A stretch of 64,000 bases of DNA from Crambe crambe (taxonomy: Eukaryota > Porifera > Demospongiae > Poecilosclerida > Crambeidae), in contig OZ004592.1 in the NCBI GenBank assembly GCA_963924555.1, forward strand, positions 4,774,001 through 4,838,000, in the 5' to 3' direction. Position numbers and translations under genes: made by a program. The first letter of the stretch is position 1. Each line of letters starts with the position of its first letter. Under the pieces are notes generated by a model. The model was not told the origin of the DNA. It saw only the letters and a list, made by a program, of their open reading frames with translations, and did no database searches. Positions 12,503-64,000 of this stretch are shown piece after piece.

Positions 12503-13591
12503 GTATGAATGTGGGCATATAGGATGTGAATGAAATGATCACAACTTGTGCATGCATACTTACCCAAACTTTTTCTTTATGTGTTCATCAGATCAAGATT
12601 TATTTCTGAAAGTATATTCATGCAGTATAATAATTATTACAGTCCATGCAGACATGCATGACTACTCTGACTCTAGCTTTGGCATATACATTACTGTGGT
12701 TACCTAAATTGATTTATAATATTAATTAGCTATTGTGTATCACCAGCTACCTCTTCAATGGATGGATCAAACACGTTCACTCTGAAATTCTAAACCCAGA
12801 AATTGCATCCACATGACATGAAATCATAATTCACTTCTTTTCTTCACTGTTGGTGATATACTTGACCTATATAATAATCAGTAGCTAGTCAGGGATTCTA
12901 CTATAGCTAACTCAATTTTGCTAGCTACCTTATTCTTTCCAGTAGCTTTATCAGACATCAAATAAAACACTTCTCCATTTTTAACTTTTAATGTAGCTGC
13001 CTTTCTTCTAATGATCCTTTTTTCTTTTTTTTTTCATTGTTGGAAGAGCCCTCAGGATACTTTTTTTCAAGTATATAAGAGATAGCTTGATCAATGACAT
13101 GATACTGCCATTGTGATCATCAATATGCTGCAATAGGCCACGTGGCGCGGACATTCTATGTTGACGTAGGGCAAAATATCGCGATTTTTTTGGTCCGGGG
13201 GGGACTGAATTTTACACTGGACCAAATATTTTCCGACAGGTCCCCCCCTTGGTTTATAATTAGATGCGCGGTAGTAGGAGCTGAATTCCATTTTTGGATG
13301 AGAGCTATTTTTAGAGATCAAGTATTGGGGCGTAAAGAAAGAGATGTCGACATTTGAAGAGGTTGGTTACTAAAGATTAATGGTATTCTAGTTCACATGC
13401 GCAGATTATAGCTAGTATAGTAGGCGCGCGACTAAAGGCAGCTGTATTTCATTCTATGACCATTGAATTGAAGCTTTAATATGTTGTTGTGTTACTTTAG
13501 TCCCAAGTCTCTCTCTATAGCTAGACTACTAGCTTAGTCCATTGCTATTCTAACATGGCTGTTGTGACTCGGTTTGTTTCCTCACATACAG
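12503..13591. other. Remainder of insertion and 5' flank of Roco gene A
   Basis: No coding exon recognised. Small frames at 13091-13357 lie in the right end of the insertion. From 13250 on, the sequence again matches copy 2 (28545 onward) and should hold the promoter of the Roco gene. Confidence 0.45.
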
Positions 13592-28000: not shown

Positions 28001-28910
28001 GTTTTGTTGTTGTTTTCATAAATCATACAGCAATTATTTTTGTTTGTGTGAATCAGATTATTTTTGTCATTACATTGGAATTGGATTACCGAATGTTGCA
28101 CAGAACATTTCTTTTACTCAAACATCTTATTTTCTGTACAAATTTAATGTTTTTGTAGTGATCTATGTACTTGTTGATGTAATTAAGTGTCATGAGTTTT
28201 TAGCAAAATAATAATCATTGCACTTCAGAGTCATAAACACTGGGTGGGGCTCCACTATTCCAGTGACCACCAACTACTGACTACTTAAAGCCCTACAATG
28301 CAATTGGAATGTAATTAAAAAGCCCAATTTGAAGTACAGTATTACTGTGACATCTAGGAGGCAGAAGATACACACGTCCCAAAAGAGAATACTTTTGGGG
28401 ATAAATTTTCTTCTGTCCATTAACTGTTTGGTCTCATCAATAATAACTTTTGATATAGCCATTGCTCCTCATTCATCCACTGTTATTGATTGTATCCTTA
28501 CAACTATACAGGAAAGGGAGTGGCCAAGTGGCAATCTATATTAATGGTTTATAATTAGATGCTCGGTAGTAGGAGCTGAATTCCATTTTTGGATGAGAGC
28601 TATTTTTAGAGATCAAGGATTGGGGCGTAAAGAAAGAGATGTCGACATTTGAAGAGGTTGGTTACTAAAGATTAATGGTATTCTAGTTCACATGCGCAGA
28701 TTATAGCTAGTATATAGTAGGCGCGCGACTAAAGGCAGCTGTATTTCATTCTATGACCATTGAATTGAAGCTTTAATATGTTGTTGTGTTACTTTAGTCC
28801 CAAGTCTCTCTCTATAGCTAGACTACTAGCTTAGTCCATTGCTATTCTAACATGGCTGTTGTGACTCGGTTTGTTTCCTCACATACAGTGGCTCCAGAAT
28901 GCTACTGTTG
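28001..28910. other. Spacer and 5' flank of Roco gene B
   Basis: Matches 10815-11377 joined directly to 13250-13591 of unit 1, without the 1.87-kb insertion. No separate gene recognised. Confidence 0.55.
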
Positions 28911-42148: not shown

Positions 42149-44255
42149 ATTTCAGTCTTATCCAGAGTGACTTGGCTGTGTTTGTTGTTCCTGAGAATCA
42201 GTGCTAAGATTGAGATCCCACTACACAACAGCAGGAGAATCAACACCCCACACACCACCCCCAGAGCAATTGCTACCACATTAGGAGGAGCTGGTGTGCT
42301 TCTTGTGGTAGCTCTTGTAGTAGCAGCAGTGTTATTATCATCGCTACTTGTACCTGTGATGTATACACTTTGATACTGACACAAGACTGATATAATTAGC
42401 TATTATAAAGTAATTATATAACTAAGCATAGTCTTGGGCATGCTCACAATTCTCCATAGCTAGCAGTTGCAGTAGCCAGCCATATAATTAATGATTTGGT
42501 CTATAGTCCCTATGTATAAAATTTAGTTAAAGATACAAGTGAAAGTCACTATCATTTTGTATACTGGCATTGTTGGCACTGAATCCAAGCTGTCTGCACA
42601 ATACTGTAGCAGCTTCACGATTGAAATTTTCATAGCATAGTCCAGCTCTATATCCAGATTCACATATCTCCACCCTTCCTTCAGTTGAAGTTGTATTATC
42701 TGTCAGCCTCACTCTACCACTACCTCTATTACAAGTTGAATCTTTAATCAAATTGCAGTGAAGCATTGGCTAATGGGCCCAAGCAGTATAAGGTTTTCTT
42801 ACCTTTGCAACTTAACCCTGCATCATTGCAGTTGCTAGTAGTATAGTCTATAGTATGATTACACTCTGTGATTTTGTTCTCAGTTTTTTGACAGAAAATA
42901 GAACTAATGGAGGATGATGAACTGCTTCCTACACCATACAAAGTCCTGCTACTTATTCCTGTAGCTCCACCACCACCTGGAAGAATGTTTCATCTGCTGA
43001 TGAACAAGAAACTGATCAAATGAGTTGCTAACTCACCTTCATGTCCCAACTGCCTGCAAAGGATACCTAGCGCACTAGAAATTTGTCGACATAATCTTGC
43101 CCAAACTCCTCCCACATAGATCTCCACACGTCCCTCAAACTCATTGGGTCCTCCGACCAGTCTCACATCTCCACCATTATTTCCTATATCTAGTTTAAGG
43201 TATGTAGCCAGTTACTAGCTTATAGCTATAGCCACAAACTTCGGGTATGGTCCCACCTTCCCCCCCAAAGGGGCACTGATCTGTCCCCCATGGCTGAAAA
43301 ATTGGCTGTGCTGCACTAAGTACAGTAACTAGCTACACAAATTTATCCATCATCCAAAAAAATTATCAAATTTCAGACAAGTATTAGCTATAGCAAGCAG
43401 AAAGTTCTACCTTCTCCCTATCTGTAGAGGAACTTAAGGCATTTTCAACACTCAGGACCCCTTTTCCATACTGTTAAAAATTATAATTACAATAATTATT
43501 GTCAGTAATTACTACCTGGACAGCTTAGCCTGACTCGTGAACACATTGTAAATCGATTCTCCATTAACTGGCACTGGTAAGGTAGTAGACCACTTTCACT
43601 TCCACCTATGTAGCTATAAATAATCATATAGTATCAAGTGAAAATTTGTGTATTTACTGGCATTGTTGGTACTGAGTCCAAGCTCTCTGCACAATACTAT
43701 AGCAGCTTCATGAGTGAAATTTTCATAGCATAGTCCAGCTCTATATCCAGATTCACATATCTCCATCCTTCCTTCAGTTAATGTTGTATTGTCTGTCAGC
43801 TTCACTCCACCACTACTTCTATTACAAGTTGGATCTTCAGATTGATCAGTGAAATCATTAGCTAATGGCCCAAACAGTAATGTTTTCTTACCTCTGCAAC
43901 TTGGTCCCATATCATCACGGTTAGTAGTAGTATTACTTATAGTATGTGTGGACTCTGTGATTTTATTCTCAGTTCCCTGACAGGAAACAGAACTAATGGA
44001 GGGTGATGAGCTACTGCCTACACCATAAAATGGCCCTCCACCTCCATTACCATCTGGGGAAATGTTTTATCTGCTGATGAATTAGAGAAGCTGAGTCACC
44101 TAACTCACCTTCATGTCCCAACTGCCTGCAAGCAACAACTGTCACACCGGAATTTGGTCGACATAATCTTGCCCATACCCCTCCCAAATAGACCTCCACA
44201 CATCCCTCAAACTCATTGGGTCCTCCAACCAGTCTCACATCTCCATCATTATTTC
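42149..44255 (-). CDS. SRCR-repeat single-pass membrane receptor, incomplete
   Basis: Exons (minus): 44109-44255, 43892-44053, 43658-43834, 43516-43605, 43037-43183, 42803-42976, 42565-42741, 42149-42353. Each SRCR domain is split over two exons, with phase-1 junctions. Type A halves read RLVGGPNEFEG...CRQLGHE and SSISSxxCQ; type B halves read GRxEICESGYRAGLCYENF and YQCQLMENRFTMCSR. The order is A, B, A, half of B, then a Thr/Ser stalk and a TM helix (VVAIALGVVCGVLILLLLCS). The last exon ends in phase 2 (DKTEM), so a cytoplasmic exon is expected but not found below 42149. No signal peptide exon is seen above 44255. SRCR receptors bind ligands such as polyanions or microbes. Confidence 0.75.
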
Positions 44256-46343: not shown

Positions 46344-49300
46344 TCATACATCAGTAACTTTTCCTATAATGATTCGATCCCTGTCCAGCACTTTCAGTCG
46401 GGGTGTATTCAATACATCTCTTTGAATAAAGTCAGGAACACCCTTAGAGTTAGGGTATTCCCTTTCCATAGCACTTTCAGTCTTCGGAAAGTCAGGCACA
46501 CCCTTTGAGTAAGGGTATTCCCTTTCTGCAGCACCTTTCATCTTCAGAAAGTCAGGCACACCCTTTGAGTAAGGGTATTCAGTTTTCAGAAGATCAGAAA
46601 CACCCTTTGAGTAAGGGTATTCACCTTTGGTTGATGCTATCTTCTGGTCACCAATATCCTCATAAACATGATTCTGCTCACCAATATCCTCATAAGCATG
46701 ATTCTGTTCCACCTCTTCGTACTTACACTCACTCTCTTTGATAGCTGCTGTCATCTCATAAGCTGTATTCTTATGTATATCTTCATCAAGACTTGATGAA
46801 CTCCTTAAAGTTAAGCACATGATATTGTGTTATTATAGTATATTTCCTACCTAATACATTCATTCCCATAGAGCAGATAAAAGATATATCACACTCCCTC
46901 AGGCTAGAAGTGTAATATGAATCATATCAGACTGCAGGATTTTTATAACAGCCATAGATACTGGAGTGCAACTATGCAATGAAGTGTTTCTTTTTTGGAG
47001 TGCAATGGCTTAGGCTATAGGCCTACTCTAACCCTCGTGTTTATTGCCATAATTTCCTTGGCACCTTGCAGTAACTATGCAGCTGAGCTAGCTGGCCTTA
47101 AGTTATATAGCTATGTATATCCTTAGGGATTACAAACTTGGTGCAAAAGTGCAATGTCTATGTGTCTTTTTTTTTTTTTGAGATTCTGCTAAGACTTATT
47201 GGTGAACCCCACATATTATTATTATGTAATGGAGTTGGCCACATAATTTTTTTGGTGACGATCATAGCTAACTCATCCCATGATAATGCCTCTCAGGGAT
47301 GTAGCTGGGGGTTTTGAAGTTAAAATCACATGCTGATGGTAACAGTCATATACTACATTTTCTTTGGCTGTCAAATCCAGCTGAATGGCTTTCTTTTATC
47401 AGAGGCTTAGCTCAATTCTTTTTGGGGGACTTGAAGGGCCCCTTTCTCAAAGGATCCTTTATCTGATGTTCCACTATGTAATGGTCATAGAGGTTAGGTA
47501 GTTACTATAAATCTTGCCAATTCACTTACATTACAGCCTTATCCAGAGTGATTTGACTCTTTCTTGTTTTGCATCTTTTCCTCAAAATCAGTGCTATGGC
47601 AATCCCACCACACAAAAGTAGGAGGACCAGCACACCACACACCACCCCAACTACTACATTAGGGGGAGCTGTAGTAGCTAAGTAAAGTAGAAGAATAATA
47701 AGTAATCATCCTGTATTACTATTTTTGTTGTTGCAGCTATTGACTGCCAATATTCCTCCCCACTTTTATTTCTCATCAAAAGAAATTCCCTCTCAACTCT
47801 ATAAGCTAAGAATTTAAACCAAAAATGTGTTGAATCTGTCTAGAGGCCAATGAAAACAGAGGCTTTACAGGTAAGATTCTAAGTAGCTACCAACATCTCC
47901 TAAATTGGTGAAGAAGAATACCAACTCAGAATTTCCTATTTCACTCCACAAACACCAAGCACTGAAACTCAGTGGTAAAAAGAGCTACTTCACAAAATCC
48001 CTGGAAACCAAATATAAAAAGTGCTCCCCACCCATCATTTGCCTCCATGCAGGCTGGAAACCTCAGTGCTCTTTGCTGGAGGTATGTTTTTATGTACCCA
48101 TTCATGCCACCACAAGACACTTGCTGACCAAGGATGCAGAAATAGTAGCCAGGAAATCAAATGGAGGGAAACATTCTGAATTGCCGGATATGCAAACGAA
48201 ACCTAGTAAAGTTCCTTGGACAGTACTTTCTTCACCATTCTAGTACCTTCCTTACAGCCAATCAGTCCTTGTATGTACAGGCACATTCAGTGATGACACT
48301 GCATGGTTTGTGACCAAAGAAAATATACCACAGCCAGACCCTACCTACCATGAAGCTGACACCAGGCTATGTTTGCATACATGTGACAAGATACCACAGG
48401 TGCTTCTGATCACACCAGACACCGATGTCTACATGATTGGAATTGGCCTCCAATGTTCCAAAACTAATTGCACAAATCAGCCTTTATAGTGCCAGAGAGT
48501 TGAGGCTACTTCATCTCAAAAATCTGATCATGGCCTTAGAAGCTGATCCAGATCTAGGCAAACTCACAACATCAGACACCATCAGAGTTACCCCATGTTC
48601 TTCACTGTAAAGTGAAATCGAGGGAGTTTATATAAACTTTAATCTGGCATCCCTACATATGTAGGAATTACCAGGGTACTGTACACTTGTGGCTCTTAGG
48701 AGTCAAAATAACAGACTATCCCAGAGAAAGGACTTACCAGGATTTACAGTTAATTCAACTATAATCATTACATCATTGGTCATCAGTGTCGAATACTGCA
48801 GATTTTGTTCCACAATGCACTGAATGTTATAGTCTTGCTTCTCCATTATGTTAGAATGAAGCTCGCCAGTCCTTATCTCCAAGGTGGTATTAATAACAGA
48901 ACTAATATTATCTTCAAGCATCTTTATAGATATCCCATTATGCCCACAGCTATCAATATCACAAGTTGACTCATTAAATATCCACCGCATGGTGATATTG
49001 GTTCCTTTACCACTGCACTGGAACATTGCAAGTTGACCATTGGTTACACTCAGGAGTTCAGGGGATGCTCTTACTTCGATTCTTTCTAAAAAAAGGAGAT
49101 AAATCTAGTACTATATCATACCACTATTACACCTTACCAAATACATTGAATTTCATGCTAGGTCCTTGAATTGGCAGATGTACCACACAGCGGTCACTAG
49201 CAGTTAAGTTGCACCGTGTCAGTGATAAACTGCAGCGATATATCCTCTGATCATTAGGGTTTGATATCAGTATGGAAAGGCTTCTACTATTATCAAGGAG

Positions 49301-49929
49301 CATGAATCCATTCGACTCGGGATCATCAGCTAATTGTACTGCACTAGAATTCTCAATCCGTTCCCATGTTATAGAATAGTCTAAATGCATGCGAACAGTC
49401 GGCAGTGGTATGGGACATCTTAGGTTTGCACGTGTACCATGGAATACATCAGTACAGACAGTTTGATTAGACACAGTTGGTACAGCTATAATGAAAATAT
49501 ATAAATCAATCATGGTTATGTGGTTTCAATATTCTAGATTAGAGTTTTGCTAAGCATGCCTTCCAGTTAGTAGCTAAGCAAAGAATTATCTGCTTATCAT
49601 TTCTATAAGATCAAGCTAGCTCTGTTTAGCTCACCAGCAAACACGACAGGGTCAGAGGACTCATCCCCTATTGTACAGAAAACAAATCCCTCCTTTTCTG
49701 AAGTAATGGTATAAGTTCGATAGTTCTGACCTACATCTGTCCGGAGATTCTTCATAGAGCTGGTGCTGGTGCGGAAGTTGAATCTCGCACCGGGATCAGG
49801 AAATCCAAAATCGTTGATGCACTGGAACCTTATTACATTTTGATCGTCTGGTGAAGGCAGAATGAATTCAAGAGTAACGGTGGCAGCGCTGAGCTGAAAA
49901 CAACCCAACAGCAAGAGCAGTGGTGCCAT
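46344..49929 (-). CDS. Ig-Ig-Ig-TM receptor with ITAM-spaced cytoplasmic tail
   Basis: Exons (minus): 49635-49929, 49138-49485, 48738-49085, 47530-47677, 46344-46803; 532 residues. The start at 49929 gives a signal peptide (MAPLLLLLGCFQLSAA). Three Ig-like domains follow with paired Cys (IRFQC...FVFC; NLRC...YRC; MFQC...IQC), then a TM helix (VVVGVVCGVLVLLLLCGGIA) with a basic stop-transfer. The tail has Y395, Y408 (YEEV), Y417 and Y427 in YEDIGEQNHVYEDI, which fits YxxI-x6-YxxI, the spacing of an ITAM. It ends with about four repeats of EYPYSKGVPDF type. All junctions agree in phase. Phosphorylated ITAMs recruit tandem-SH2 kinases in vertebrates; that function here is inferred. The Ig3-TM intron holds a transposon fragment. 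Confidence 0.8.
46433..46630. repeat. In-frame tandem repeat encoding EYPYSKGVPDF units
   Basis: Roughly 60-bp units share ACACCCTTTGAGTAAGGGTA (plus strand). On the coding strand they give YPYSKGVSDL, YPYSKGVPDF, YPYSKGVPDF and YPNSKGVPDF, so frame and Tyr are conserved in all but one position. Confidence 0.9.
47905..48603 (+). mobile_element. Transposon fragment in the Ig3-TM intron
   Basis: The plus strand reads YHEADTRLCLHTCDKIPQV, TPDTDVYMIGIG and later MALEADPDLGKLT. The last part matches the decayed protein in the 18943-22502 transposon. Frames break between pieces. The element is antisense to the receptor gene and lies in its intron. Confidence 0.55.
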
Positions 49930-50298
49930 GAATTTGATACAATTAACACTCTCTACAGAAATTGCCGTGGTTTTTAATTTTGTAATGACGGTGGTACCAA
50001 ATTCCTGAGATTGGGAATCTGGCTGGCAGAGCACAGTCACGGTGGACGTGGAGCATAGCAGTGGAGATCGAGAGTGGAGATCGAGAGTGGAGATCGAGAG
50101 AGCGGTGACAGCGTAGCAGCAGTCTCTTACAATTATTGTATGTAAGTATATTGAGTACACGCAATATTTGATGTAATCAAGCTGTATTGATGGGTATTAA
50201 TTGGAATATATTGTTAAGCTTACCGTTATGTTACAACTTATGCATGCCTATTCACACAAGCTAGCAGCTTCATACTCTATCCTGTGCTATTAGAAATT
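49930..50298. promoter_or_regulatory. Candidate bidirectional promoter, copy 1
   Basis: 369 bp separate the divergent start codons of the Ig receptor (minus, 49929) and the BIG-like exon (plus, 50299). A short tandem GGAGATCGAGAGT repeat lies at 50063-50100. No TATA element is assigned. Confidence 0.45.
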
Positions 50299-50425
50299 AT
50301 GGCCTCACCATCAGGACCAGGAAGAAATGTGTTCCTAACACGAGCATTAGAAAAGATTCTCTTGGAACGCGAGATAAAGCAGACTCATCATGCCCAATTG
50401 CGAAACTCCTGTGAGATAACACTGA
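50299..50425 (+). CDS. First exon of a BIG/ARFGEF-like Arf-GEF, copy 1
   Basis: The ATG opens [20 protein letters not shown] and HAQLRNSCEITL, then a donor (CTGA/GTAAAT) in phase 1. This closely resembles the N-terminus of ARFGEF1/2 ([28 protein letters not shown]). I find no second exon downstream in this copy, where retrotransposon sequence follows at 51244. It is probably a truncated gene copy. BIG proteins activate Arf at the trans-Golgi. Confidence 0.6.
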
Positions 50426-51243
50426 GTAAATACATAAAAACATTGATGTGATATATGCACTGTCATTAGCCTTTTTTATTTAGAATAAATATTTTTTCGA
50501 TGCTCAGAGGGTTGTGAGTGATCACTAAAACCCTAGGCACTGATCTGGTTATGAATCAAGCCTGCCTAAGCAGATTCAAATTCATTTCAGCTTGTACACT
50601 ATGATGAAACCTCCAATGAACTGCATAGCTACAATGCAGTTTGGGACAAACTTTAACTGTGCATATGAGGATAGGATATCACACAAGTTAGTGAGCATCC
50701 AGTTGCCTATAAGAAAATATATAGTATCTCTGACTCTATAATTATTCTGGATACATTTACCATATTTTCATCTCTAACCTCCATTGCTTCAAAAAAGGTG
50801 ACAAACAAGTAAAGGGTCCTTTATAAATAGTTTTTCTCTTTGATCAATCAATCGTTACAACATCCTGGGTGACAGCAAATATGGTAGACTAAGAGACTAG
50901 TCAAATACAAGGTCAAAATCCAGGAATCAAGGGGACAGGGCATATTTCTAGTGCACTGCAAAAATGTCTGCCTTGTTGAAGGTTGAAAGCTAGCAGGTTG
51001 GAAAATTAATGACATGCTATTTTTGAACATGTCAAGCTTTATAGCACAGTCAATTTCTGAAGAAAGTTGTTTGATGATGATGAAGTTGACGAATGACCAG
51101 ATGAAAATGATGATTATAGAGGTTCTGCTCTTCATACTTGAGTCCTAGCTCACTGAAGGTGTTCTGTCTTCAAGTCAGGAGTTGCTAATAGTAGAAGAGA
51201 ATTATGAAAGTTACTATTCCAATGGGCCATTTGTGCCATCCCT

Positions 51244-51720
51244 GCACCCCTCTCAATCTGAGACATTGGAGACTTCGGGTTGACTCCAAGTGTGCCCTCT
51301 GTAATTCACCCCACCCTACAGTCCTCCATATCTTCAATGCCTGCCCAACCTCCCTAAACCAGGGGAGATTCACCTGGTGCCGTGATAGTGTGCTCTAGTG
51401 TCTGATGAAAGCTGCTTTGCCAACCATGTCTCCGGATGAAAAACTTTACGGTGACCTGTGACAATCCTACCACCATACCAGAGGATATTCTGGAAACAAC
51501 AGCTTGCCAACATTGTCATCAAGCTGGGGGGGGAGTGGAACTTACCATTCCCTATGACTCTCCTGAGGCCTTGAATGCTCACCAACAGAAAAAGGACAAA
51601 GAAATCTACCAACTGGCACTAGGTGAGCTAGACAAGGGCACTAATAGAAATCAGGGCTCTTGTCCACTCCCTCCCCCAGTACCACTCAGACTTCAAAGAG
51701 TATTCCCTGGCCTCACCATG
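51244..51720 (+). pseudogene. Non-LTR retrotransposon 3' coding fragment
   Basis: The plus strand reads LRHWRLRVDSKCALCNSPHP then HIFNACPTSLNQGRFTWCRD SVL, like the zinc-binding C..C...H....C tail of reverse transcriptases. After frame changes come LPTMSPDEKLYGDL and ELTIPYDSPEALNAHQQKKD. Frameshifted and truncated at both sides. Confidence 0.65.
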
Positions 51721-52428
51721 CAAGAAACAAGTAGCTAGCTAAATCATTTAACAAAGCTGGCAAGATTGCAATTGCTTGCTCACACTCCATTTTCAGAGCA
51801 AGGATAAATGTCCTGGAACTCCAGCAGAGCCCTGTTGACTCATACCTCAACCCACTTTTATTCTTTCATTCATCATTATTGTCATTATCTATTAATTTTT
51901 CCTTCAATTACTACTTGGAACTTTGTTGCCCTAGGGCTTTCTTTAGTTGTGCACTCCCCTTCAGTGCTGGATTCAGAGCCAAAATCATAAGTATAAACAA
52001 ATTTGTTGTTAGATCCATTGGCCAAAATAAACAAATCAGCTGATTGATCATGGAAAAATGAGAAATAAGATCCAATAGTAAGATAAACCATACTATCTAG
52101 GATCCCAGTATCCATCTTTGCATAGAAATCTTCCTGACTGCTGTAGCTATGCATGGGCAGTCTGATGATCCCAAAACACCGTCAGGTAGGCGTAGTGGAA
52201 AACAGTGCAATGATAGGTGCAAGGTCCAGGGAGGGTCTTTTTGATATCTTCCTTGGTCATCTCTTGTCCTTGGATGTGTTCATTCACATCCCGAAATAAG
52301 AGGCGCGCATGCGCATATACAGATCCTATAGACTACATAAGTGGCGATCTTTTACCTTGTCTGCCTGGGTTCGAGGCTATCTCTGCCCGTGCGTGTACAC
52401 GATTCTTCCAGTCTACAGTCATGTCACT
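51721..52428. other. Non-coding spacer
   Basis: Nothing recognised. The small open frames (for example 52154-51885, minus) have no domain. Confidence 0.4.
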
Positions 52429-52900
52429 GCACTTAATTCACTGCACTCAATTCACTGCACCTAATTAATTCACTGCACTCCATGTACTTAATTCACTGCA
52501 CCCAATTCACTGCACTTATTCACTGCACTCAATTCACTGCACTTATTCACTGCACTCAATTCACTGCACTTATTCACTGCACTCCATGTACTTAATTCAC
52601 TGCACCCAATTCACTGCACTTATTCACTGCACTCAATTCACTGCACTTAATTCACTGCACCCGATTCACTGCACTTTTTAAAAAATTCACTGCAGTTTAA
52701 TTCACTGCACCTAATTCACTGCACTTAGCTAATTCACTGCATTCAATTCACTGCACTTAATTCACTGCACATAATTCACTGCACTTAATTCACTGCACTT
52801 AATTCACTGTGGTTCACTGACTTAATTCACTGCATTTAATTCACTGCACTCAATTCACTGCACTGCAGTTAATTCACTGCATGCAAGTCAATTCACTGCA
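52429..52900. repeat. TTCACTGCAC minisatellite
   Basis: Over 30 copies of the core TTCACTGCAC separated by short variable spacers (usually TTAA, CCAA, TCAA, TTA). Higher-order repeats are visible, such as CTCCATGTACTTAATTCACT twice. Confidence 0.95.
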
Positions 52901-53659
52901 CCATACTGCAGTCACTGTACTCTGGTCAAAGCACATGCACTCCTCTCACTCCACTTTTATTTTTGATACTAATTCTGCTCCATACTGGCTAGTTGGTATT
53001 ACTGTGATTTCATCTTTTGGATTATGAAGTTGTACACATTAGCTATCTCAAGATCATAGCTAGCTAGCTAATTCAGTATAGTTCCACTTTCTTTATCATG
53101 GACATGATAAAAACTGTGAAAAATAGCATTTCATCCTTTGCATTGCAAGTTGTACAAGAGCTACACTAGTTCACATCCTCAACTTGTTCTGTAGTGAGAG
53201 GTCCACCAAATTTTCTTATCATGTGCATTCATCACAGTAGCAAAGAGCAAAGCACTCCTGAGTCTGAGTACGTATATAGCTAGTCTGGCCATCTCACATT
53301 ATTCTATGATAAAAGCCACTATGACATTGCTGGTGAGCCTACCACACTTTGACTTCAGTTGGGTATGTCCAACCATAATTAAGTTATTACAAGTGAAGGT
53401 GCAATGTGCCCCAAATCACTTTATCATTTCTGAATAAGAATACTGTTAGCTTAAATTAATGAGCTACATTTATACCACATGATAATTATGTACTAGCTGC
53501 CTCATGGACTGTTTATATTTGTTTCAGCTATACATAAACAGCAAGTACCAAGTTATCACTGTATTTTCACTACATATTATAGTTAATCAGTTTATAGCTA
53601 ACTAGCCATAGCAATAATAAATTGTTGATCTTCAATTTTCAAGCTTCAGCGGTGGCTGA
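52901..53659. other. 3' flank of the receptor tyrosine kinase
   Basis: No exon recognised. It should contain the 3' UTR of the minus-strand kinase gene. Confidence 0.4.
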
Positions 53660-56600
53660 TTAAACACTTGTGCCTTCTGCAAGAACTTCAGCAGAGAATG
53701 TTGAAAAATCGAAGTATCTAGCAACAGTTATCAACAGTGTATCCACTTCACACACCAGATCTTCAAAAAAAGGTCTTTTATCAGGTGATTCATTCCAACA
53801 TCGTGTGATTAGAGTATACCTGCAAATGTAAAGTGCTTATTGTGATAGCAATAGCTAGCATTGATTTCTAATTATGATGTGGCCCAAATTTACTGCATCC
53901 TCACACTCTTTAATAATTCTGACAAATTGATAGCCATAGGGGACTTCACATGATATTATATTAGCTAATAGCCATCAATGTTTGCATGAAATGCTGATAG
54001 CAATCAATAGATACGTGTACATGTAATTATAAGTACATAAGCTACACATAATTACTAGATTTAGCTAACTTACACTTGATCAGTGCAGCTTGCATTCATT
54101 GGCTTCTCCAATCTCTCACCTTGTTGTAGGAACTTAACCAGAGCAAAGGGATGAATGCCAGGATAGGGGGTGTGACCAACACTAAAGATTTCCCAGCAAG
54201 TAATGCCATAGGACCACTGCACATGCATCATAAGGTTACAGTTATATTTATCATTGTGATTCATAAGTTAATTTTGCACTGGCTAAGAGATGCATAATAT
54301 TGTAGTATTTAGCCGCACTTTTTAAATTGTGGATACTAAATTAATTTAGCAATTTGAGAAGTAGAATCAATGATTATTGCATGCATGTTAACAGCGATAA
54401 ACATACCACTATCAGAATAGCTACAGCCATACAAATCAGTAGAACTTTAATTGATGGCTTTTTAAATAAAATTAAGCCACCCACCAAACCACTAAATTTA
54501 GTACCCAGGTGTAGAGTAGAAGTGACTACTCTAAACAGAGAAACTCAAGTGCTATAAAGCAGCCATTATACCTTGATTCATTTTTGGCATCAATAATTAA
54601 TTGCACTACATGCATATTGTACTTATTCTTCTTACATGAAGCAGTGAGCAGGGAAAATTGAAGAATTTTGCAAAGAACTAGAAGTTACAATTATGTAGCA
54701 CGCCATACTTTTTGACAGTTTAATTGCTATGGCTAAAATGTAGAAACTCAGGAGTGTTACTTTAAATCCCTTTGAGCCACCCCTTGCACAATTAGAATAA
54801 TACGATGACAAAGCATGCAATTAAAAAAAGAATGACGCTAAAAATTATTGATTAATTTACATCTGCTATGGTAGCTAGTGTTTCTTTGCCTAGTAGGAAG
54901 GGCTAGTTAGTATTTGAAATTGTAGTTTAACTGTGTAACCCACCTCATCAATTATTTATCAGACAAATGTATATAGAGCTAGTCTAAATCATGAAGTGGT
55001 TATAGCTAATACAGTGCATCCTGGTTTAACTGTCAACCTTTGGATTGAACAAAGAGGGTGCTATAATTACACAGAGGTGGCCCCTAATTATTGGGTTTGG
55101 TATCAGGTTCTTTCCTTGTGACTTTTGATCTGTTACTTACTAACTCAGATGATCACTGAGGCAGGTTCCACTGTATACGTAGATACTCACCACATCCGTC
55201 TTTTCAGAGAAAATCCCATCAAGGAGACTTTCCAAGGCCATCCACTTGATGGGAAGCTTCACTGAGGGTTCTTCCCCTTCTTTCACCTGTCGGAAGTAAT
55301 TGGTGGTGTACATGTCTTCAGCAAGGCCAAAATCTCCCACTTTGATCACAAAATGGTTATCAATCCTGCATTAATCACTCAGATAAGCAGTGATAAGTAA
55401 AGTTAGTGAATCATACATGCAATTGCGAGCTGCTAGGTCTCGGTGTACGAATTTTTGAGAAGCCAAGTAAGTCATTCCTTTAGCAACCTGCAGGCACATC
55501 GACAGCAACTTTTTCTGGGCAGCTTCGATCTTTTGAAGAAAAAAAAGAAGAAGAAGAATAAGCAAAAACACTTTTATTAACTGCATTACATAGCTGTATA
55601 CCATTTCACTTCCAGCTTCTTCAGCTATGTTGAGGTGAGGTCTCTCCTTTTTTAAGTAAGTCAGGAGACTGCCATTAGCCATGAAGGGCATGACAATATA
55701 AGGAGCTTCTCCCACATCAGTACATATTCCAATCAAAGTCATCACGTTTGCGTGATCGAACTGCATCATCTTCTCACTCTCTTCAATCATGTCTTTTATA
55801 TTCCTTGGTGAAAAACAACCTATGGAAGTTATATCGAGGACATGTTAGAGCATAGGGTTAAGTTATAGCTAGATACTGTATACTAGCTAGCTATACTCTT
55901 AAGTACTACAATAAGCTGTAATTATATTTTTCATCCATTTTCTGTACGAAATTTCATACAGGGTTCTAGCTATCTAGGGGGAACTACGTATTACACACAC
56001 TTGAAAGACTTTCGGGAGAGAAGCTGGAGTATTTTGGAGGGGGGATAAGCTTCCTACCTGTCCCCACCCCTCCCAGTATTGGTACCTTTCAATGTCTTGA
56101 CAGCTACTACCTCAGCTGTAGTCCTTCCTTGCCAGCCAGTGAGGCGTCCTCGATACACTAGTCCAAACTCCCCTTAAAACAAAAGTGCAATCTTAGTCAC
56201 ATATACGTAGCTAAGTTATGAATAAGTGCTGCATGAGTTGTCAGGTCACTTATATATTAGTTGTATCATAATTAGCTAAATATCATACTGTACTGGTGGA
56301 AATTTTGTGGGGTAGCACTTTAATGGATCTAGTGCTTTCGATAACAATGACAACAACAACAACAAAAACCAAATAACAATGACAACAACAGCAACAACAA
56401 AAAGAATAAAACAACAGCAAGAAATTCTGTCAAAACCATGAATATAGCTAATGCTAGCAACGACTATAAGGCCACACAAATGAAATTCAGAATTATGACA
56501 TCAGTCATGTAGCTAATTAGAACATTTGTGTGCGAATTGATTTGCATTATAATCTTTCGCGGTACAGTGCTAAGAGTCTTTGCTGAAAAGTGGCAATTTT

Positions 56601-59600
56601 GGGAATTCAAAGTGGGTGTGGTTTTCAAAATAAAAGATGTACATTCTGTGTGGATGACTTTTCAGAATGAATTGCCTAAGAAACTATTTGTGTGACTTAT
56701 AGTTTCCAATTTGAGGTTCTACTAAATTTACCTTGCACTTGATTAGCTACAGTTAATGCTACAAAATTCTTGTGAGATGTTCTTGCAAGTTATACCTTGT
56801 CCTATGGTTTGAACAAGTTGAATGTGACGACCAGGTATTAGAAAGTGAGATTTATTGAAGATTCTCATCAATCCAGGTTCAATCATCTGATCTCGTCCAT
56901 TATAGCTGCAGTAGTCGTTGAACTGTTGAGATGGCAGAGGATAATCACCTGTGCAGCACAATAATTCAACTGTTTTTTATAAGCCTATTATATAGCTACT
57001 CCATGGACTCTTGTACATTATAATAATCTGCATTCTGCTAAATAAATGAGGTTATTAGTTAATTAGCTATGGCTTGTATACTATTAGGAACTCTGCATAA
57101 CTGAATATTAATTATGCAGCCAGTCTTTGGCATGATAGCAAATGTTTTTTACAATAATATTATAGAACTTCCGAATAAATGGACACATTTGTGATAGATA
57201 GTAAGGGGTCTTGTGGAGCAAAAATTCAAAATGGAGTTATTGGTATCATTTTAAAGCTCTTAATCTGGAGATTTATATGATTTTTAAATCAAAATTATAC
57301 ACCATTTTGTTCCCGAAGACCCTTTTCTCAAGTACTATCACATTTGGGAATTGGGACTCAGCTTCCCGAATGGTCATGTGATACTTTTGTGTGCATGTGT
57401 ATATATATTCATGCAACAGCTGATGCTATAAATTACTTAGCTAACTAGCTACTTGATTGCCAATGGCTAGCTAGTTCTGATATAATATATGTACCTACAG
57501 CTGAGCAATTTATAAGCTGCTATCTAGCTATAAGCCACATTAGCTATGGTACCATAGTGATTTTACATATCTATATAGCTATCTACTTACCACTCCTGTC
57601 AGCATCAACTTCTCCTTCCTTTGTATTCATAGGACCCACTACAGGTATAAAGACCACTAATAACACAGAAGATAATTCTCAATGCTGACACTTCATATAC
57701 CATGCATATCCAAGGGGGTGGAAAAACGGATACAGTTATCTTCACCACTTGACCTAAATAAGTCAAAATAATCATTTACGCAGCTACCAGTATGTAGTAG
57801 CTTATAGTCCTGGAAAAGAAGCGGGGCCTGTGGTACGAGGCTATACTGTCATAATAATAATATGTAGGTTGAAAGTAGCTACATCTATAGAATTGTCAAG
57901 TATGAGTCGATTTCCACCTGTTACTGTCATAATAGACCTATATATACATATACAAGTGAGCGCAAAAAATTTCTTCTAAATAAAAAGGATAGCTTAAAAT
58001 CTAGCTGGGCTATATAATGTACTGCAGCCTCATATGAAAACAATCCCTACATTTACATCCACTACCTATAGCTAGCTATGGCAGTTGTAAAAGTAGGGAT
58101 TGTTTTCATATGAGGCTGCAGTACATTATATAGCCCAGCTAGATTTTAAGCTATCCCTACTTAACCTTTTTATTTAGAAGAAATTTTTTGCGCTCACTTG
58201 TTTCTATCCTTTTTTAACCAATGAGATTGAGTGTCTGTTATTACTTAATAATGCAAAATGAACCAATAAAGTAAGTTTACAGTCATGTTCCTAGTGCCAG
58301 TCTATCACACATTTCTAATTTTTTTTCATTTACAGTCATTTGGCAAGTAGTATTCTAGGCTTTGAGAATATTTAATGGTACTTCAACTCAATAAGTGGCA
58401 GACAGCTGCATACATAGTCTTTCAAAAGACCTGAATGTCTCAGCAGAATATAGAGCCTGATTTGTGCATGCGTGTAGCACCTTGGCACTTTAATACTCTT
58501 GACATTATTAAGTTTGGAATGGAAAGTATTGACAAATGTCAAGTTTGGGAATGACAAACGTCAAGTTTGGGAATCACAAACATCAAGTTTGGAAATGGAA
58601 ACATCAAGTTTTGAAATGGCAAGGCCTAATTGGCCACCGCACCCACATATTATATCTAATTTATAAGAGGATATCTATGTAGCTACGCCATGCTTACTTT
58701 GCCTTGGGATATTTTCTCTTCATAATGATGTAAAATAACATGATCGTTCCAGCACTTATCCCTAATATCAGCACTATTAAAATAGACACTGGTACACCAA
58801 TGGTGACACTTGTAGGAAATGAAGTTGTAGGAAATGAAGTTGTAGGAAATGAAGGTGGAGATTCTGAAATTACTAAATGAAATGAAAAATGAAAAAAATA
58901 TAATGTGATAGCAAAAGAACACAATAATTTGCAGGCATAATTATAGCTAGGCTAAGCTAGCGATGTATAAAAATGAGTGTTCAGAAAAAAATTTTCATGA
59001 TCTGAAAATGGCTAGCTATAGTACATGAATGCAATCAAAGATTTGAGGTGAGTAAAGCAAGCCCCACAGTAGAGAGTTAGCTGGATAAATTGAAATTGTC
59101 ATAAATAGCTCTGCTAAATATAAAGCAATCTGATTGGTCAGTTACAGGGCACTATAAGCCTATGTACTCTCAGGGGCCCCATAGGGCATAGGGCTATTGC
59201 TTAACCAACATATGTCAAAAGCTGTCACATGCTGAGTATAATTATAGCTATAAGATCAACCATTGCAGCTGGCTACTCAACACTTGACCAATCCAAGCGA
59301 TGGAATGGGTTTGGTATATATAGAGAAAATATCTGTCTGTTTCCACCAGTCAAATAGCAGAATATCCTCTGGTATGGTGGTAGGATTGTCACAGGTCACT
59401 GTAAGTGAAGTAGGAATAGTTAGCTCGTTTGGTAAGGCCATACCAATTTGATTTTATGTTTCTCAGATTCCCTGGAAGAAAAATGACACCCGGCAGGCAG
59501 GAGGAAAAAAAGAAATAAATAAGTTTTACAAGAATAATAGCTTCCGATATAAGCTACTGAAGCTACAGCTTCCTTGTCCCTCTTCAAGCAGATGCACACA

Positions 59601-62021
59601 TGCTTACAGTTAAACTGTTCACACAGGGAGACTGGATCTGTCACAGGAACAATATGAGGATCGAGAAAGTTATCTTGCTTGCTGATAAACATGAGAGATA
59701 GAGAGATAGATAGATGGTCATACTTGAGCAACAATAAGAACTTTCCCAGGTACACTGCACCACCTGTCTGGCTTTGATAATCTCATGATAACATTTTATA
59801 GTGACACTAAGCCAAGCAGAAGAAGTAACCATCATAAAAAATGAGCACTTGCCACCTGATTTGGTCAGTAATTTCAATTTTTTTAAAGTGAAAATTTTGA
59901 CCAGGAAAATCAAAATTAAATTGGTATGGCCTAATATTGGTGATGGGTAAGAGGTTACTTGACTGAAGTTCACTCAACTTTTTTGAACCGCACACAGCCA
60001 TCCCTTAGAATAATTTTTTCCCTTTACTTGTATAAGTTAGTACATGGCATTGCCTAGGTTGTAATCTCACCTAACTAAGTAGGCTTGCTAAAATAACAAT
60101 TTCGTTTTTGCTATATGTGAGTCAATCTCGTGGCCATTATATTTTCGACACCTATACAACTACCATCTACTGCTAAAATAACTATCTTTAACATGCCTGG
60201 TTATTGATGCTTCCAATGTTGTCCTATAGAGAGCACTTTCCAAGTATATACAGCTCTTTTATCCATGCATCGAGCAGAAGTTCCCCATTAAAACGGAGTG
60301 CCCGGCTATCTACACTGCACAACACATGGCTTGTTTTTACAGCTTTCCTGCATAGGTACTTCAAGCATGGCCACTGAAACCTACTCTAAAGGAGAGTAGA
60401 GAAGCTAAACTACCTCAATGAAAAATTGCCCATGTGGCAAGTCAAACATGACGCCATAAAAATTTAAGGTTGTGTAGTGACTGTGTATAGATATATGTAC
60501 CATAGATAGATAGTTGCCTTTGGCTTACGAGGCCGTCAAAATGGATGCTCATATATATACATAGTAGGATTTTCTCTAGTATGATGGCAGCAAGTGCAAT
60601 GTAGAACCAGATAAACAATTTATTTAACTTTTGAAATACCTTTCCTCTTCTATGAAGATTTTAGGTAGCTAGAAAGTCAGTGTAGTGTTTTGAGAAAACT
60701 GTAAAGTGAAATCGAGGGAATTTATATAACCTTATGACCTTTCCCTACATATGTAGGAAATACCAGGGTACTGTACACTTGTGGCTCTTAGGAGTCAAAA
60801 TAACAGACTATCCCAGAGAAAGGACTTACCAGGATTTACAGTTAATTCAACTATAATCATTACATCATTGGTCATCAGTGTCGAATACTGCAGATTTTGT
60901 TCCACAATGCACTGAATGTTATAGTCTTGCTTCTCCATTATGTTAGAATGAAGCTCGCCAGTCCTTATCTCCAAGGTGGTATTAATAACAGAACTAATAT
61001 TGTCTTCAAGCATCTTTATAGATATCCCATTATGCCCACAGCTATCAATATCACAAGTTGACTCATTAAATATCCACCGCATGGTGATATTGGTTCCTTT
61101 ACCACTGCACTGGAACATTGCAAGTTGACCATTGGTTACACTCAGGAGTTCAGGGGATGCTCTTACTTCAATTCTTTCTAAAAAAAGGAGATAAATCTAG
61201 TACTATATCATACTACTATTACACCTTACCAAATACATTGAATTTCATGCTAGGTCCTTCAATTGGCGGATGTACCACACAGCGGTCACTAGCAGTTAAG
61301 TTGCACCGTGTCAGTGATAACTTGCAGCGATATACCCTCTGATCATTAGGGTTCGATACCGGTATGGAAAGGTTTCTACTATTATCAAGGAGCATGAATC
61401 CATTCGACTCGGGATCATCAGCTAATTGTACTGCACTAGAATTCTCAATCCGTTCCCATGTTATAGAATAGTCTAAATGCATGCGAACAGTTGGCAGTGG
61501 TATGGGACATCTTAGGTTTGCACGTGTACCACAGAATACATCAGTACAGACAGTTTGATTAGACACAGTTGGTACAGCTATAATGAAAATATATAAATCA
61601 ATCATGGTTATGTGGTTTCAATATTCTAGATTAGAGTTTTGCTAAGCATGCCTTCCAGTTAGTAGCTAAGCAAAGAATTATCTGCTTATCATTTCTATAA
61701 GATCAAGCTAGCTCTGTTTAGCTCACCAGCAAACACGACAGGGTCAGAGGACTCATCCCCTATTGTACAGAAAACAAATCCCTCCTTTTCTGAAGTAATG
61801 GTATAAGTTCGATAGTTCTGACCTACATCTGTCCGGAGATTCTTCATAGAGCTGGTGCTGGTGCGGAAGTTGAATCTCGCACCGGGATCAGGAAGTCCAA
61901 AATCGTTGATGCACTGGAACCTTATTACATTTTGATCGTCTGGTGAAGGCAGAATGAATTCAAGAGTAACGGTGGCAGCGCTGAGCTGAAAACAACCCAA
62001 CAGCAAGAGCAGTGGTGCCAT
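53660..62021 (-). CDS. Receptor tyrosine kinase with three Ig-like domains
   Basis: Exons (minus): 61727-62021, 61230-61577, 60830-61177, 58698-58863, 57591-57656, 56796-56948, 56086-56172, 55602-55819, 55417-55529, 55191-55365, 54074-54216, 53660-53819; about 757 residues. Order: signal peptide, three Ig domains, a stalk with three FPTTS-type repeats, TM helix (VSILIVLILGISAGTIMLFY), juxtamembrane, complete kinase: GQGEFGLV loop, VAVK Lys, HRDLAARN, DFGLAEDMY, Tyr in TNYFR, IKWMALESL, WSYGITCWEI. All catalytic motifs are intact. The TM exon ends in phase 2 but the next recognised exon needs phase 1, so a tiny exon is missed or the junction is broken; unspliced, the TM exon ends in KYPKAK and a stop. 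The Ig part is 97% identical to that of the ITAM receptor. Confidence 0.75.
56340..56430. repeat. (CAA)n-rich imperfect microsatellite in an RTK intron
   Basis: Repeated CAACAA and CAATGACAA motifs. On the minus strand they give a false hydrophobic open frame. Confidence 0.85.
57952..58201. mobile_element. Foldback MITE, 250 bp, same family as 8460-8956
   Basis: Begins ACAAGTGAGCGCAAAAAATT and ends with the complement; inner arms are inverted (GATAGCTTAAAATCTAGCTG and complement). It lies in the RTK intron between the TM and juxtamembrane exons. The interior differs from that at 8460. Confidence 0.9.
59432..59940. mobile_element. Possible MITE with GGCCATACCAATTT ends
   Basis: Inverted matches AGGCCATACCAATTTGATTT (about 59436) and complement (about 59930) bound 500 bp in the RTK Ig3-TM intron. 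No target duplication is clear. The interior open frames have no recognised domain. Confidence 0.5.
60105..60485 (-). mobile_element. Fragment of the 18943-22502 transposon family
   Basis: The minus strand matches about 19065-19480 of that element (for example TTTGACTTGCCACRTGGGCA; GCAGGAAAGCTGTAAAAACA) with scattered substitutions. Only one end region is present. Confidence 0.75.
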
Positions 62022-62401
62022 GAATTTGATACAATTAACACTCTCTACAGAAATTGCCGTGGTTTTTAATTTTGTAATGACGGATATGACCGTCCGGCCG
62101 GCTGGCCGGACGGTGGTACCAAATTCCTGAGATTGGGAATCTGGCTGGCAGAGCACAGTCACGGTGGACGTGGAGCATAGCAGTGGAGATCGAGAGTGGA
62201 GATCGAGAGAGCGGTGACAGCATAGCAGCAGTCTCTTACAATTATTGTATGTAAGTATATTGAGTACACGCAATATTTGATGTAATCAAGCTGTATTGAT
62301 GGGTATTAATTGGAATATATTGTTACCGTTATGTTACAACTTATGCATGCCTATTCACACAAGCTAGCAGCTTCATACTCTATCCTGTGCTATTAGAAAT
62401 T
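62022..62401. promoter_or_regulatory. Candidate bidirectional promoter, copy 2
   Basis: 380 bp between divergent start codons of the RTK (62021) and the BIG-like exon (62402). Relative to copy 1 it has an added GC-rich perfect palindrome (CCGTCCGGCCGGCTGGCCGG type) and one fewer GGAGATCGAGAGT repeat. Confidence 0.45.
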
Positions 62402-62528
62402 ATGGCCTCACCATCAGGACCAGGAAGAAATGTGTTCCTAACACGAGCATTAGAAAAGATTTTCTTGGAACGCGAGATAAAGCGGACTCATCATGCCCAA
62501 TTGCGAAACTCCTGTGAGATAACACTGA
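62402..62528 (+). CDS. First exon of a BIG/ARFGEF-like Arf-GEF, copy 2
   Basis: Same length and phase as 50299-50425, with the same FLTRALEKI start and a conserved donor. The remaining exons would lie beyond the window if this copy is the real gene; none is recognised between here and 64000. Confidence 0.6.
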
Positions 62529-64000
62529 GTAAGTACATAAAAACATTGATGTGATATATGCACTGTCATTAGATTGTGTGTCCATCAACTACTCTATCCC
62601 TACTTCACCCGTTCCCCCCCAGCCATGCCTTTTTTATTTAGAATAAATATTTTTTCGATGCTCAGAGGGTTGTGAGTGATCACTAAAACCCTAGGCACTG
62701 ATCTGGTTATGAATCAAGCCTGCCTAAGCAGATTCAAATTCATTTCAGCTTGTACACTATGATGAAACCTCCAATGAACTGCATAGCTACAATGCAGTTT
62801 GGGACAAACTTTAACTGTGCATATGAGGATAGGATATCACACAAGTTAGTGAGCATCCAGTTGCCTATAAGAAAATATATAGTATCTCTGACTCTATAAT
62901 TATTCTGGATACATTATTTTCATCTCTAACCTCCATTACTTCAAAAAAGGTGACAAACAAGTAAAGGGTCCTTTATAAATAGTTTTTCTCTTTGATCAAT
63001 CAATCGTTACAACATCCTGGGTGACAGCAAATATGGTAGACTAAGAGACTAGTCAAATACAAGGTCAAAATCCAGGAATCAAGGGGACAGGGCATATTTC
63101 TAGTGCACTGCAAAAATGTCTGCCTTGTTGTAGGTTGAAAGCTAGCAGGTTGGAAAATTAATGACATGCTATTTTTGAACATGTCAAGCTTTATAGCACA
63201 GTCAATTTCTGAAGTAAGTTGTTTGATGATGATGAAGTTGACGAAGGACCAGATGAAAATGATGATTATAGAGGTTCTGCTCTTCATACTTGAGTCCTAG
63301 CTCACTGAAGGTGTTCTGTCTTCAAGTCAGGAGTTGCTAATAGTAGAAGAGAATTATGAAAGTTACTATTCCAATGGGCCATTTGTGCCATCCCTACACT
63401 GTAAAAACGAGATGGTGAACATCACTACATTTGTTGTGATGTTCACTACTCTATCAGTTCACTACTAAGTAGTGAAGTCATACTGTAGTGAACTTCAATT
63501 CTCCTGTAGTAACCATCACTACATAATGATTCACTAGTTGTATATCGATCCGACTGTAGTAAGCTTCACTACCATGATTGTTACAGAAGTGTTTATTCAC
63601 GTGGTGTATCATTATTATAGTAGTATTATGATGATGAAGTACAGTTAAACATGAGAAATATGATATTTTAAGCTCACAAATTGAGACCTATTGGGACCAT
63701 ATGTTTTACAAATATGTAATGGATGGTGATCAGTAAATCGATGGTATTTATACACATGTATATCTGATGAAGAAACGACTTCATATGCGTGATAATGTTG
63801 ATTAAGACATGTTGTGATAAGAACACACATAACAGTGTTTCCGAAGCTGGTGTCTGATAAATATGTAATATTTGACAAAACTTTGGCTCTTCTTCTGTTA
63901 TTCCACACACAATGACTTGCTTCATTTTGTATGTGATTCCATTTATGGTGGCAGAGCGAGCCCTAAAGGTAAATAGCTAGGATCAATTAGGACAAAGAAA
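62529..64000. other. End of duplication and intergenic DNA
   Basis: 62529-63395 belongs to the duplicated block, with no exon recognised. 63396-63600 has several short inverted CACTAC/GTAGTG motifs and may be the end of a transposable element cut by the window edge. The rest shows nothing recognisable. Confidence 0.4.

What the first reader, a model, noticed from the sequence alone, without database searches (positions are those of the whole stretch)
46344..62021. Two receptors share one ectodomain but signal through different tails (ITAM type versus tyrosine kinase)
The signal peptide and three Ig domains of the genes at 46344-49929 and 53660-62021 differ at nine of about 330 residues by my count, and Ig3 is identical in the parts compared. 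Beyond the phase-1 junction after Ig3, one continues into a TM exon and an ITAM-spaced tail, the other into a stalk, a TM helix and a complete tyrosine kinase. This is the layout of paired receptors: same ligand surface, different output. In vertebrates such pairs arise in immune loci. A pair that couples one Ig ectodomain to an RTK and to an ITAM in a non-bilaterian-like genome would be a new system.
Basis: partly seen in the sequence, partly recalled or inferred. Interest (0 to 1): 0.92.

Follow-up and report, generated by a model that had tools for sequence, protein, structure and literature searches.

The report
One sponge receptor head, several tails
In a sponge genome, nearly identical copies of one receptor's outer part are joined in frame to different inner signalling parts (a tyrosine kinase, a tyrosine-motif tail, a long serine-rich tail), so one outside signal could be read out in several ways, although nothing yet shows that these fused genes are expressed.

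Summary
Signal peptide and three Ig domains differ at exactly 9 of 330 residues; Ig3 is identical. The shared block is DNA, about 2.7 kb, upstream region included. Beyond a phase-1 donor, gene A continues into a TM exon and tail of a local SRCR-receptor family; gene B into the TM and kinase of an RTK that matches contig C5 (about 93%). A third copy (C, 97% in Ig3) has a long kinase-less tail; a fourth (D, 88%) has EGF and kinase exons downstream. So these are chimaeras: one repeat-bounded ectodomain cassette before unrelated tails.

Two parts of the interpretation weaken. The ITAM is one motif (shuffle p 0.02), absent from the closest tail. 'Same ligand surface' is unproven: 8 of 9 changes fall in Ig2. 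The mix is also wider: 26 of 73 Ig3 matches have a kinase exon downstream, and six C8 genes read have tyrosine-motif tails. Gene B is in frame only with an inferred splice. Expression and function are untested; no purifying selection is visible in the ectodomain.

The parts
49635..49929 (-). Gene A exon 1: signal peptide and first Ig-like domain
   Evidence: Open from ATG 49929, donor GTGAGC; 1 nt different from B. Ig1 was not modelled
49138..49485 (-). Gene A exon 2: second Ig-like domain, 348 nt, phase 1-1
   Evidence: 12 of the 15 A-B nt differences lie here; AlphaFold2 best model pLDDT 84.9 of five (84.9 to 54.8), mostly strands; Foldseek rows 1-3: a pseudorabies gD entry, nectin-1 D1, 2B4
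48738..49085 (-). Gene A exon 3: third Ig-like domain, 348 nt, phase 1-1, protein identical to B
   Evidence: the exon-3 frame of B has 87 matches in the genome. Ig3 was not modelled
47840..48604 (.). Dispersed repeat in intron 3 of gene A that ends at the cassette breakpoint
   Evidence: Copies on C5, C18, C8, C3, C16 and elsewhere; query end 925 = 48604
47530..47677 (-). Gene A exon 4: transmembrane helix, same family as the TM exon of neighbouring SRCR receptors
   Evidence: 13 matches, itself included, all C15 minus strand; KD19 2.96
46344..46803 (-). Gene A exon 5: cytoplasmic tail with YEEV, YEDI-x6-YEDI and four EYPYSKGVPDF-like repeats
61727..62021 (-). Gene B exon 1: signal peptide and first Ig-like domain
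61230..61577 (-). Gene B exon 2: second Ig-like domain
60830..61177 (-). Gene B exon 3: third Ig-like domain
60698..63399 (-). Ectodomain cassette copy of gene B (that of gene A is 48604-51247); B and C share it from 60524
   Evidence: third copy C15:3004749-3007775
62627..63397 (.). Dispersed repeat that forms the upstream end of the cassette in A, B and C
   Evidence: Many genome matches, several ending at the same query base 1362 = 63397
60124..60484 (.). Repeat piece beside the downstream end of cassette B; another part of the same repeat lies beside cassette A
   Evidence: Six genomic repeat copies are hit in both
53380..59358 (-). Segment of gene B shared with an RTK at C5:2082517-2088671
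   Evidence: 92.8% over 4677 and 93.7% over 1171 alignment columns, gaps counted
58698..58872 (-). Gene B exon 4: stalk and transmembrane helix
53660..56905 (-). Gene B tyrosine kinase exons (56905-56796, 56172-56086, 55819-55602, 55529-55417, 55365-55191, 54216-54074, 53819-53660)
   Evidence: PF07714 E 5.1e-86; VAVK, HRDLAARN, DFG in the translation; start at 56905 inferred
42143..42293 (-). TM exon of a neighbouring SRCR receptor, source family of gene A's tail
   Evidence: 73% to 47524-47671; an SRCR ORF of this gene (L041) passes the Pfam cut-off

Best explanation
Genes A and B are recent chimaeras. A cassette holding the upstream region, signal peptide and three Ig-domain exons of a 3-Ig receptor was duplicated and landed upstream of unrelated transmembrane-plus-tail exons. 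Ig exons 2 and 3 are phase 1-1 and the tails begin with phase-1 acceptors, so each landing can give an open frame. Gene A took the TM and tail of a local SRCR receptor. Gene B carries the TM and kinase of an RTK related to C5:2.086 Mb. Copy C took a long serine-rich tail. Copy D is probably the native type, with EGF and kinase exons downstream. If expressed, all copies would sample the same or a similar extracellular cue. Gene B would signal by dimerisation and trans-phosphorylation of its own kinase; gene A would recruit SH2 proteins (Syk-, Src- or SHP-like) to phosphorylated YEEV/YEDI sites. Shown: the DNA blocks, junctions, frames and domain content. Inferred: repeat-mediated copying, direction of copying, the B juxtamembrane splice, expression, shared ligand, signalling.
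For: Shared block and its limits; 9 of 330 residues differ; third copy open for 1010 aa with a phase-1 acceptor; fourth copy with an EGF ORF and kinase exons about 7 kb downstream on the same strand. TM exon of A: 12 further matches, all on C15; I printed 11 of these 12 loci and saw SRCR-type ORFs in all 11 by eye, and 3 of 3 ORFs tested, from two of the loci, pass the Pfam SRCR cut-off. Kinase half of B matches C5, while about 9 kb upstream of the C5 TM exon show no Ig cassette match. Repeats end at the cassette edges. Kinase B against C5: 7 nonsynonymous and 5 synonymous codons of 335, no stop.
Against: No transcript evidence. The ectodomain shows no purifying selection: nonsynonymous/synonymous codons A-B 9/4, A-C 16/3, B-C 10/1, and coding differs no less than non-coding (A-B 15/991 coding against 0/149, 1/52, 0/38 in introns and 4 and 5 mismatches in 570 and 779 upstream columns), so the copies could be drifting. 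Tail A against the SRCR tail has dN 0.176, dS 0.214 over 127 codons, weak constraint. B needs an inferred splice. No relative of the ectodomain was found in the protein collection, so age and spread are unknown. D's exons were not joined into one model.
Confidence: 0.72

Rival explanations
1. The copies are young segmental duplicates without function: fusions that happen to be open and are not yet lost.
For: Coding differs no less than non-coding between A and B and no purifying selection is visible in the ectodomain; B needs an inferred splice; B has Cys at residue 114 where A has His and C has Arg.
Against: Three fusions to different tails are open and in phase, for 532, 723 (with the inferred splice) and 1010 codons. 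The A-B differences cluster in Ig2 (12/348 against 4/844, Fisher p 0.00018), which plain drift does not predict, though gene conversion could.
Confidence: 0.3
2. True paired receptors under selection: the RTK and tyrosine-motif forms compete for one ligand, one driving and one tuning the response.
For: Shared upstream region, so possibly the same expression; near-identical Ig1 and Ig3; the wider 3-Ig family also has kinase and tyrosine-motif tails; a tandem-SH2 phosphatase-like gene is present.
Against: No ligand and no expression data; Ig2 differs at 8 residues; no ITIM match in tail A and a weak ITAM.
Confidence: 0.3
3. Assembly artefact: collapsed or falsely duplicated haplotypes.
For: The low divergence could be that of two haplotypes; reads were not available to check.
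Against: A and B have different flanks in one contig; C lies 1.8 Mb away and D on another contig. The paper of the matching assembly reports 459-fold HiFi, QV 58.1, Hi-C and removal of 18 haplotypic duplications (PMC12166358 passages).
Confidence: 0.05

Closest known systems
Vertebrate paired receptors (SIRP, LILR, KIR; recalled)
   Same: Near-identical Ig ectodomains in one locus with different cytoplasmic outputs
   Different: There the outputs are ITIM against ITAM-adaptor coupling; here one output is a built-in tyrosine kinase, one a tyrosine-motif tail from an SRCR receptor, one a long serine-rich tail
Geodia cydonium Ig-bearing RTK (cited in PMC12018476, passage seen) and the Geodia 'sponge adhesion molecules' with similar Ig domains but no kinase (recalled)
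   Same: Sponge receptors with Ig-like ectodomains, on a kinase or on a kinase-less tail
   Different: I recall no near-identical ectodomain shared there between a kinase form and a non-kinase form; the original papers were not seen
Hydractinia Alr and Botryllus fuhc receptors (PMC12065747 passages)
   Same: Receptors with ITAM, hemITAM or ITIM motifs at invertebrate allorecognition loci, the cnidarian included
   Different: No receptor tyrosine kinase partner is mentioned in the passages read
RTK ectodomain shuffling (PMC8662651 passages)
   Same: Extracellular domains swapped between kinases
   Different: Here the swap is recent, its junctions are visible, and it crosses from kinases to non-kinase receptors
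Geodia cydonium SRCR tyrosine kinase O97191 (P0046)
   Same: SRCR and RTK modules combined in a sponge
   Different: There an SRCR ectodomain on a kinase, here an Ig ectodomain on an SRCR-receptor tail

Membership tests
Receptor tyrosine kinase (gene B) | Complete tyrosine kinase domain with catalytic motifs | tested here: met
   PF07714 5.1e-86, profile 1-256 of 258; VAVK, HRDLAARN, DFG, IKWMALES in the translation
Receptor tyrosine kinase (gene B) | Signal peptide, ectodomain, single TM helix and kinase in one open frame | tested here: inconclusive
   Open 723-aa frame only with an inferred acceptor at 56905; no RNA
Immunoglobulin superfamily | Ig fold in the ectodomain | tested here: met
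   Ig2 only: best model pLDDT 84.9, two of five models below 57; 3 PDB matches at E <= 0.001, a pseudorabies gD entry, nectin-1 D1 and 2B4, TM-scores (by query) 0.55-0.60. Against: Pfam Ig_3 scores 24.9, below its cut-off of 30. Ig1 and Ig3 not modelled
ITAM receptor (gene A) | Yxx[LI]-x6-8-Yxx[LI] | tested here: met
   One match, YEDIGEQNHVYEDI; 2.0% of 5000 shuffles have one
ITAM receptor (gene A) | Motif conserved among relatives | tested here: not met
   Closest tail (L030, 76%) has YEEVEQNHVYEDI, spacing 5, no ITAM match
ITAM receptor (gene A) | Phosphorylation and Syk recruitment | not testable with these tools
   Two papers state that sponges have Syk (passages); Syk was not looked for by name in this genome
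Paired receptors | Highly similar ectodomains in one locus | tested here: met
   9 of 330 residues differ, 12 kb apart
Paired receptors | Opposed signals (ITIM against ITAM or charged-TM adaptor coupling) | tested here: not met
   No ITIM match in tail A, no charged residue in the TM core shown; the partner is a kinase
Paired receptors | Same ligand, same cells | not testable with these tools
   Needs binding and expression data

The most novel reading that the evidence does not exclude
A repeat-bounded ectodomain cassette (upstream region, signal peptide, three Ig exons) is copied as a module in a sponge genome and has recently been joined to at least three unrelated signalling tails, giving one recognition surface with kinase, tyrosine-motif and scaffold-type outputs: multi-output receptors being made by exon-phase-matched chimaerism, in an animal without adaptive immunity.
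Probability: 0.35. Interest if true: 0.85.

Novelty: new variant of a known kind. Interest (0 to 1): 0.62.

Why it matters
Paired receptors and RTK domain shuffling are usually seen long after the event. Here likely donors, junctions, repeats and phase compatibility are all visible in one assembly, and the shuffle crosses between receptor tyrosine kinases, SRCR receptors and tyrosine-motif receptors. This makes the birth of 'one cue, several outputs' receptors directly testable in a sponge by RNA and binding experiments, and bears on how ITAM-like and RTK signalling could come to share ligands early in animals.

Tried and rejected
Gene B juxtamembrane exon: the exon at 57638-57591, with a clean GT-AG pair, gives stops; a 5-nt microexon was considered and set aside in favour of the acceptor at 56905. 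One related C8 gene (L015) makes the phase change with an exon of length 2 mod 3, by my reading, so an unseen exon in B is also possible.

'Pair only': rejected, since C and D share the ectodomain. 'B's kinase native to B's ectodomain': rejected, since kinase exon 8 is 99% identical to C5, and 83-89% to further C5 and C9 loci, against 63-74% to the kinase exons next to 3-Ig genes on C8, C13 and C18.

Selection tests on the ectodomain gave no clear result. Ig2 changes were not mapped on the model: no coordinates were in the box. Searches for the ectodomain in the protein collection found nothing at E <= 0.001 (with all of A, 7996 candidates scored, capped; with 330 aa, 788 candidates); this tool needs shared 5-residue words, so distant relatives are not excluded. 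A phage-collection search was an uninformative control. In that tree A-D form one clade (100/100) and the six tyrosine-motif-tailed C8 genes another (100/100), while 9 of 14 inner branches are open, order within A-D included.

Papers: ten searches used (sought the genome, not the topic). By their listings none describes an ectodomain shared between an RTK and an ITAM-type receptor in a sponge. The library is open-access only and I read passages of eight papers, none in full, so this is weak evidence of absence.
Full report
WHERE IT IS. The window is G000:C15:4774001-4838000 in a genome of 143,139,886 bases and 119 contigs. Among the twenty best matches to the B kinase, the rows that name an organism are sponges (Geodia barretti, Amphimedon, Halichondria), except one mite, Oppia nitens. 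C15 (7,244,623), C18 (6,567,827) and C20 (6,340,956 bases) match chromosomes 12, 15 and 17 (7.24, 6.57, 6.34 Mb) of Crambe crambe odCraCram1.1: 143.20 Mb, 124 scaffolds, 18 chromosomes (PMC12166358, passages). I take this as the species; it is an inference from lengths.

THE OBSERVATION. Both genes are on the minus strand. Gene A has five exons with GT-AG borders and a 1599-nt CDS. Gene B shares exons 1-3. The ectodomains have 330 codons each, 15 nt differences, 9 residue changes (F43L, H114C, S167N, L171P, I172V, I180V, S184K, L202P, Q205E, A to B) and 4 silent codons; Ig3 has no residue change. Differences are uneven: exon 2 has 12 in 348, while exons 1 and 3 and introns 1 and 2 together have 4 in 844 (Fisher p 0.00018). 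With D as outgroup, by my reading of the codon table shifted by D's two extra codons, 8 nt changes in exon 2 are derived in A, all nonsynonymous, against 2 in exons 1 and 3 (Fisher p 0.005). This is either diversification of Ig2 or a conversion tract; I cannot tell which.

THE SHARED BLOCK IS DNA, NOT ONLY EXONS. Window 48604-51247 matches 60698-63399 (95.8% over 1897 and 98.6% over 779 columns). A third copy lies at C15:3004749-3007775 (98.6% to B over 2107 columns and 97.5% over 791). So A, B and C share about 1.3 kb or more upstream of the ATG, perhaps the promoter. The upstream edge lies within a few bases in all three (51243-51247, 63397-63399, 3007773-3007775) and coincides with the end of a dispersed repeat, several of whose genome copies end at the same query base. 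On the other side, gene A's cassette ends at 48604, where another dispersed repeat (47840-48604) ends. Six genomic copies of that repeat are also hit, in another part, by 60124-60484 beside cassette B. Repeats therefore sit at the edges; that they caused the copying is inferred.

TAIL OF A. The TM exon of A has 12 other matches in the genome, all on C15 minus strand, 11 of them between 4.75 and 4.91 Mb. I printed 11 of these 12 loci (not L037) and saw SRCR-type ORFs in all 11; 3 of 3 ORFs tested, from L041 and L035, pass the Pfam SRCR cut-off. The tail exon has three further matches; the best, C15:4886942, is 76% identical and belongs to an SRCR receptor. So A is an Ig ectodomain on an SRCR-receptor tail. 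The tail has YEEV and YEDI-x6-YEDI. Of 5000 shuffles 2.0% contain an ITAM match. The relative's tail has one YEDI and no ITAM match; the motif in A looks like a short tandem duplication (alignment).

TAIL OF B. Window 53380-59358 matches C5:2082517-2088671 (92.8% and 93.7% over 4677 and 1171 columns). Kinase exon 8 of B is 99% identical to C5, 83-89% to other C5 and C9 loci, and 63-74% to kinase exons next to 3-Ig genes on C8, C13 and C18. About 9 kb upstream of the C5 TM exon show no Ig cassette match. B is therefore also a chimaera. The kinase is complete (PF07714, 5.1e-86) and differs from C5 at 7 nonsynonymous and 5 synonymous codons of 335 (dN 0.0089, dS 0.024). The join from TM exon to kinase is open only with an acceptor at 56905 that I infer.

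COPIES C AND D. C (97% in Ig3) joins in phase 1 to a TM and a kinase-less tail, open for 1010 aa, with no Pfam domain over its cut-off and one further genomic match, C1:2708037, at 58%. D (C13, 88% in Ig3) has an EGF ORF after Ig3 (EGF_CA 6.7e-13) and kinase exons about 7 kb downstream on the same strand; I did not build its full model, so one gene is inferred. A-D form one clade of the 17 rows (100/100).

THE WIDER FAMILY. Ig3 of B has 87 matches in the genome. I used 73 of these 87, leaving out the 14 partial or weak ones, and 34 of the 150 listed kinase-exon hits, those near them and the C5 relative; 26 of 73 have a kinase exon downstream on the same strand before the next Ig3. The kinase list scored 150 of 202 candidates, so 26 is a lower bound, and for the other 47 a kinase was not found rather than excluded. 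In the 40 kb of C8:4.16-4.18 and 4.24-4.26 Mb, tblastn found no kinase, and behind six of the Ig3 genes there I saw tyrosine-motif tail ORFs by eye. The one tail tested has seven Yxx[ILV] sites (shuffle p 0.0002) and four ITIM matches (p 0.0008). These six genes form one clade (100/100). So the tails of this ectodomain family have changed more than once.

READERS OF SUCH TAILS. 135 SH2 matches (150 of 166 candidates scored). At C18:6539084-6540942 two SH2 matches, one partial, lie beside a tyrosine phosphatase match on the same strand, a SHP-like layout. Two papers state that sponges have Syk (passages); I did not look for Syk by name here.

FUNCTION. If expressed, A-D would meet the same or a similar ligand. 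B and probably D would signal through a kinase; A through SH2 proteins; C by unknown partners. No selection signature supports function in the ectodomain, so 'recent, perhaps non-functional chimaeras' stays open.

NOVELTY. An Ig-like domain in a sponge RTK, RTK ectodomain shuffling and ITAM/ITIM motifs on candidate allorecognition receptors of a cnidarian are in print (passages); in Halichondria panicea a transcriptome study classed almost 200 receptors, with kinase, Ig and FN3 domains dominant, as cytokine receptors (passage). One near-identical ectodomain spread over an RTK, an SRCR-type tyrosine-motif tail and a third tail did not appear in the listings of my searches of an open-access library. 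I rate it a new variant of a known kind.

Noticed in passing
G000:C8 3.9-6.6 Mb: A large cluster of 3-Ig receptor genes holding most of the 87 Ig3 matches; blocks with a kinase exon downstream alternate with blocks where none was found.
   Followed up: partly
window 13250-17930 and 28545-33236; 9130-11381 and 26355-28548: A second segmental duplication (91-94%) containing a long ORF that looks like a GTPase or NLR-like protein with an Ig-like C-terminus, and a kinase-like fragment (by eye).
   Followed up: no
window 4354-7393: Two long ORFs that read like an animal haem peroxidase (by eye, not searched).
   Followed up: no
window 52413-52901: Tandem array of an ATTCACTGCACT-like unit between genes A and B.
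   Followed up: no
window 57952-58201: Palindrome (MITE-like, 88% between arms) inside the intron after gene B's TM exon, where the alignment to the C5 relative breaks off.
   Followed up: partly
window 61577-61230, residue 114 of gene B: Residue 114 is His in A, Cys in B, Arg in C, and Arg in D at the aligned site: a fast-changing position near the start of Ig2, with an extra Cys in B.
   Followed up: no
L046 and window 57638-57591: The juxtamembrane exon with a clean splice pair is out of frame in B, and the C5 relative has the same layout, which suggests an unseen small exon or an alternative acceptor used by both.
   Followed up: partly
G000:C5 1.47-1.52 Mb: Dense cluster of SH2 matches, often in neighbouring pairs, on the minus strand.
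   Followed up: no
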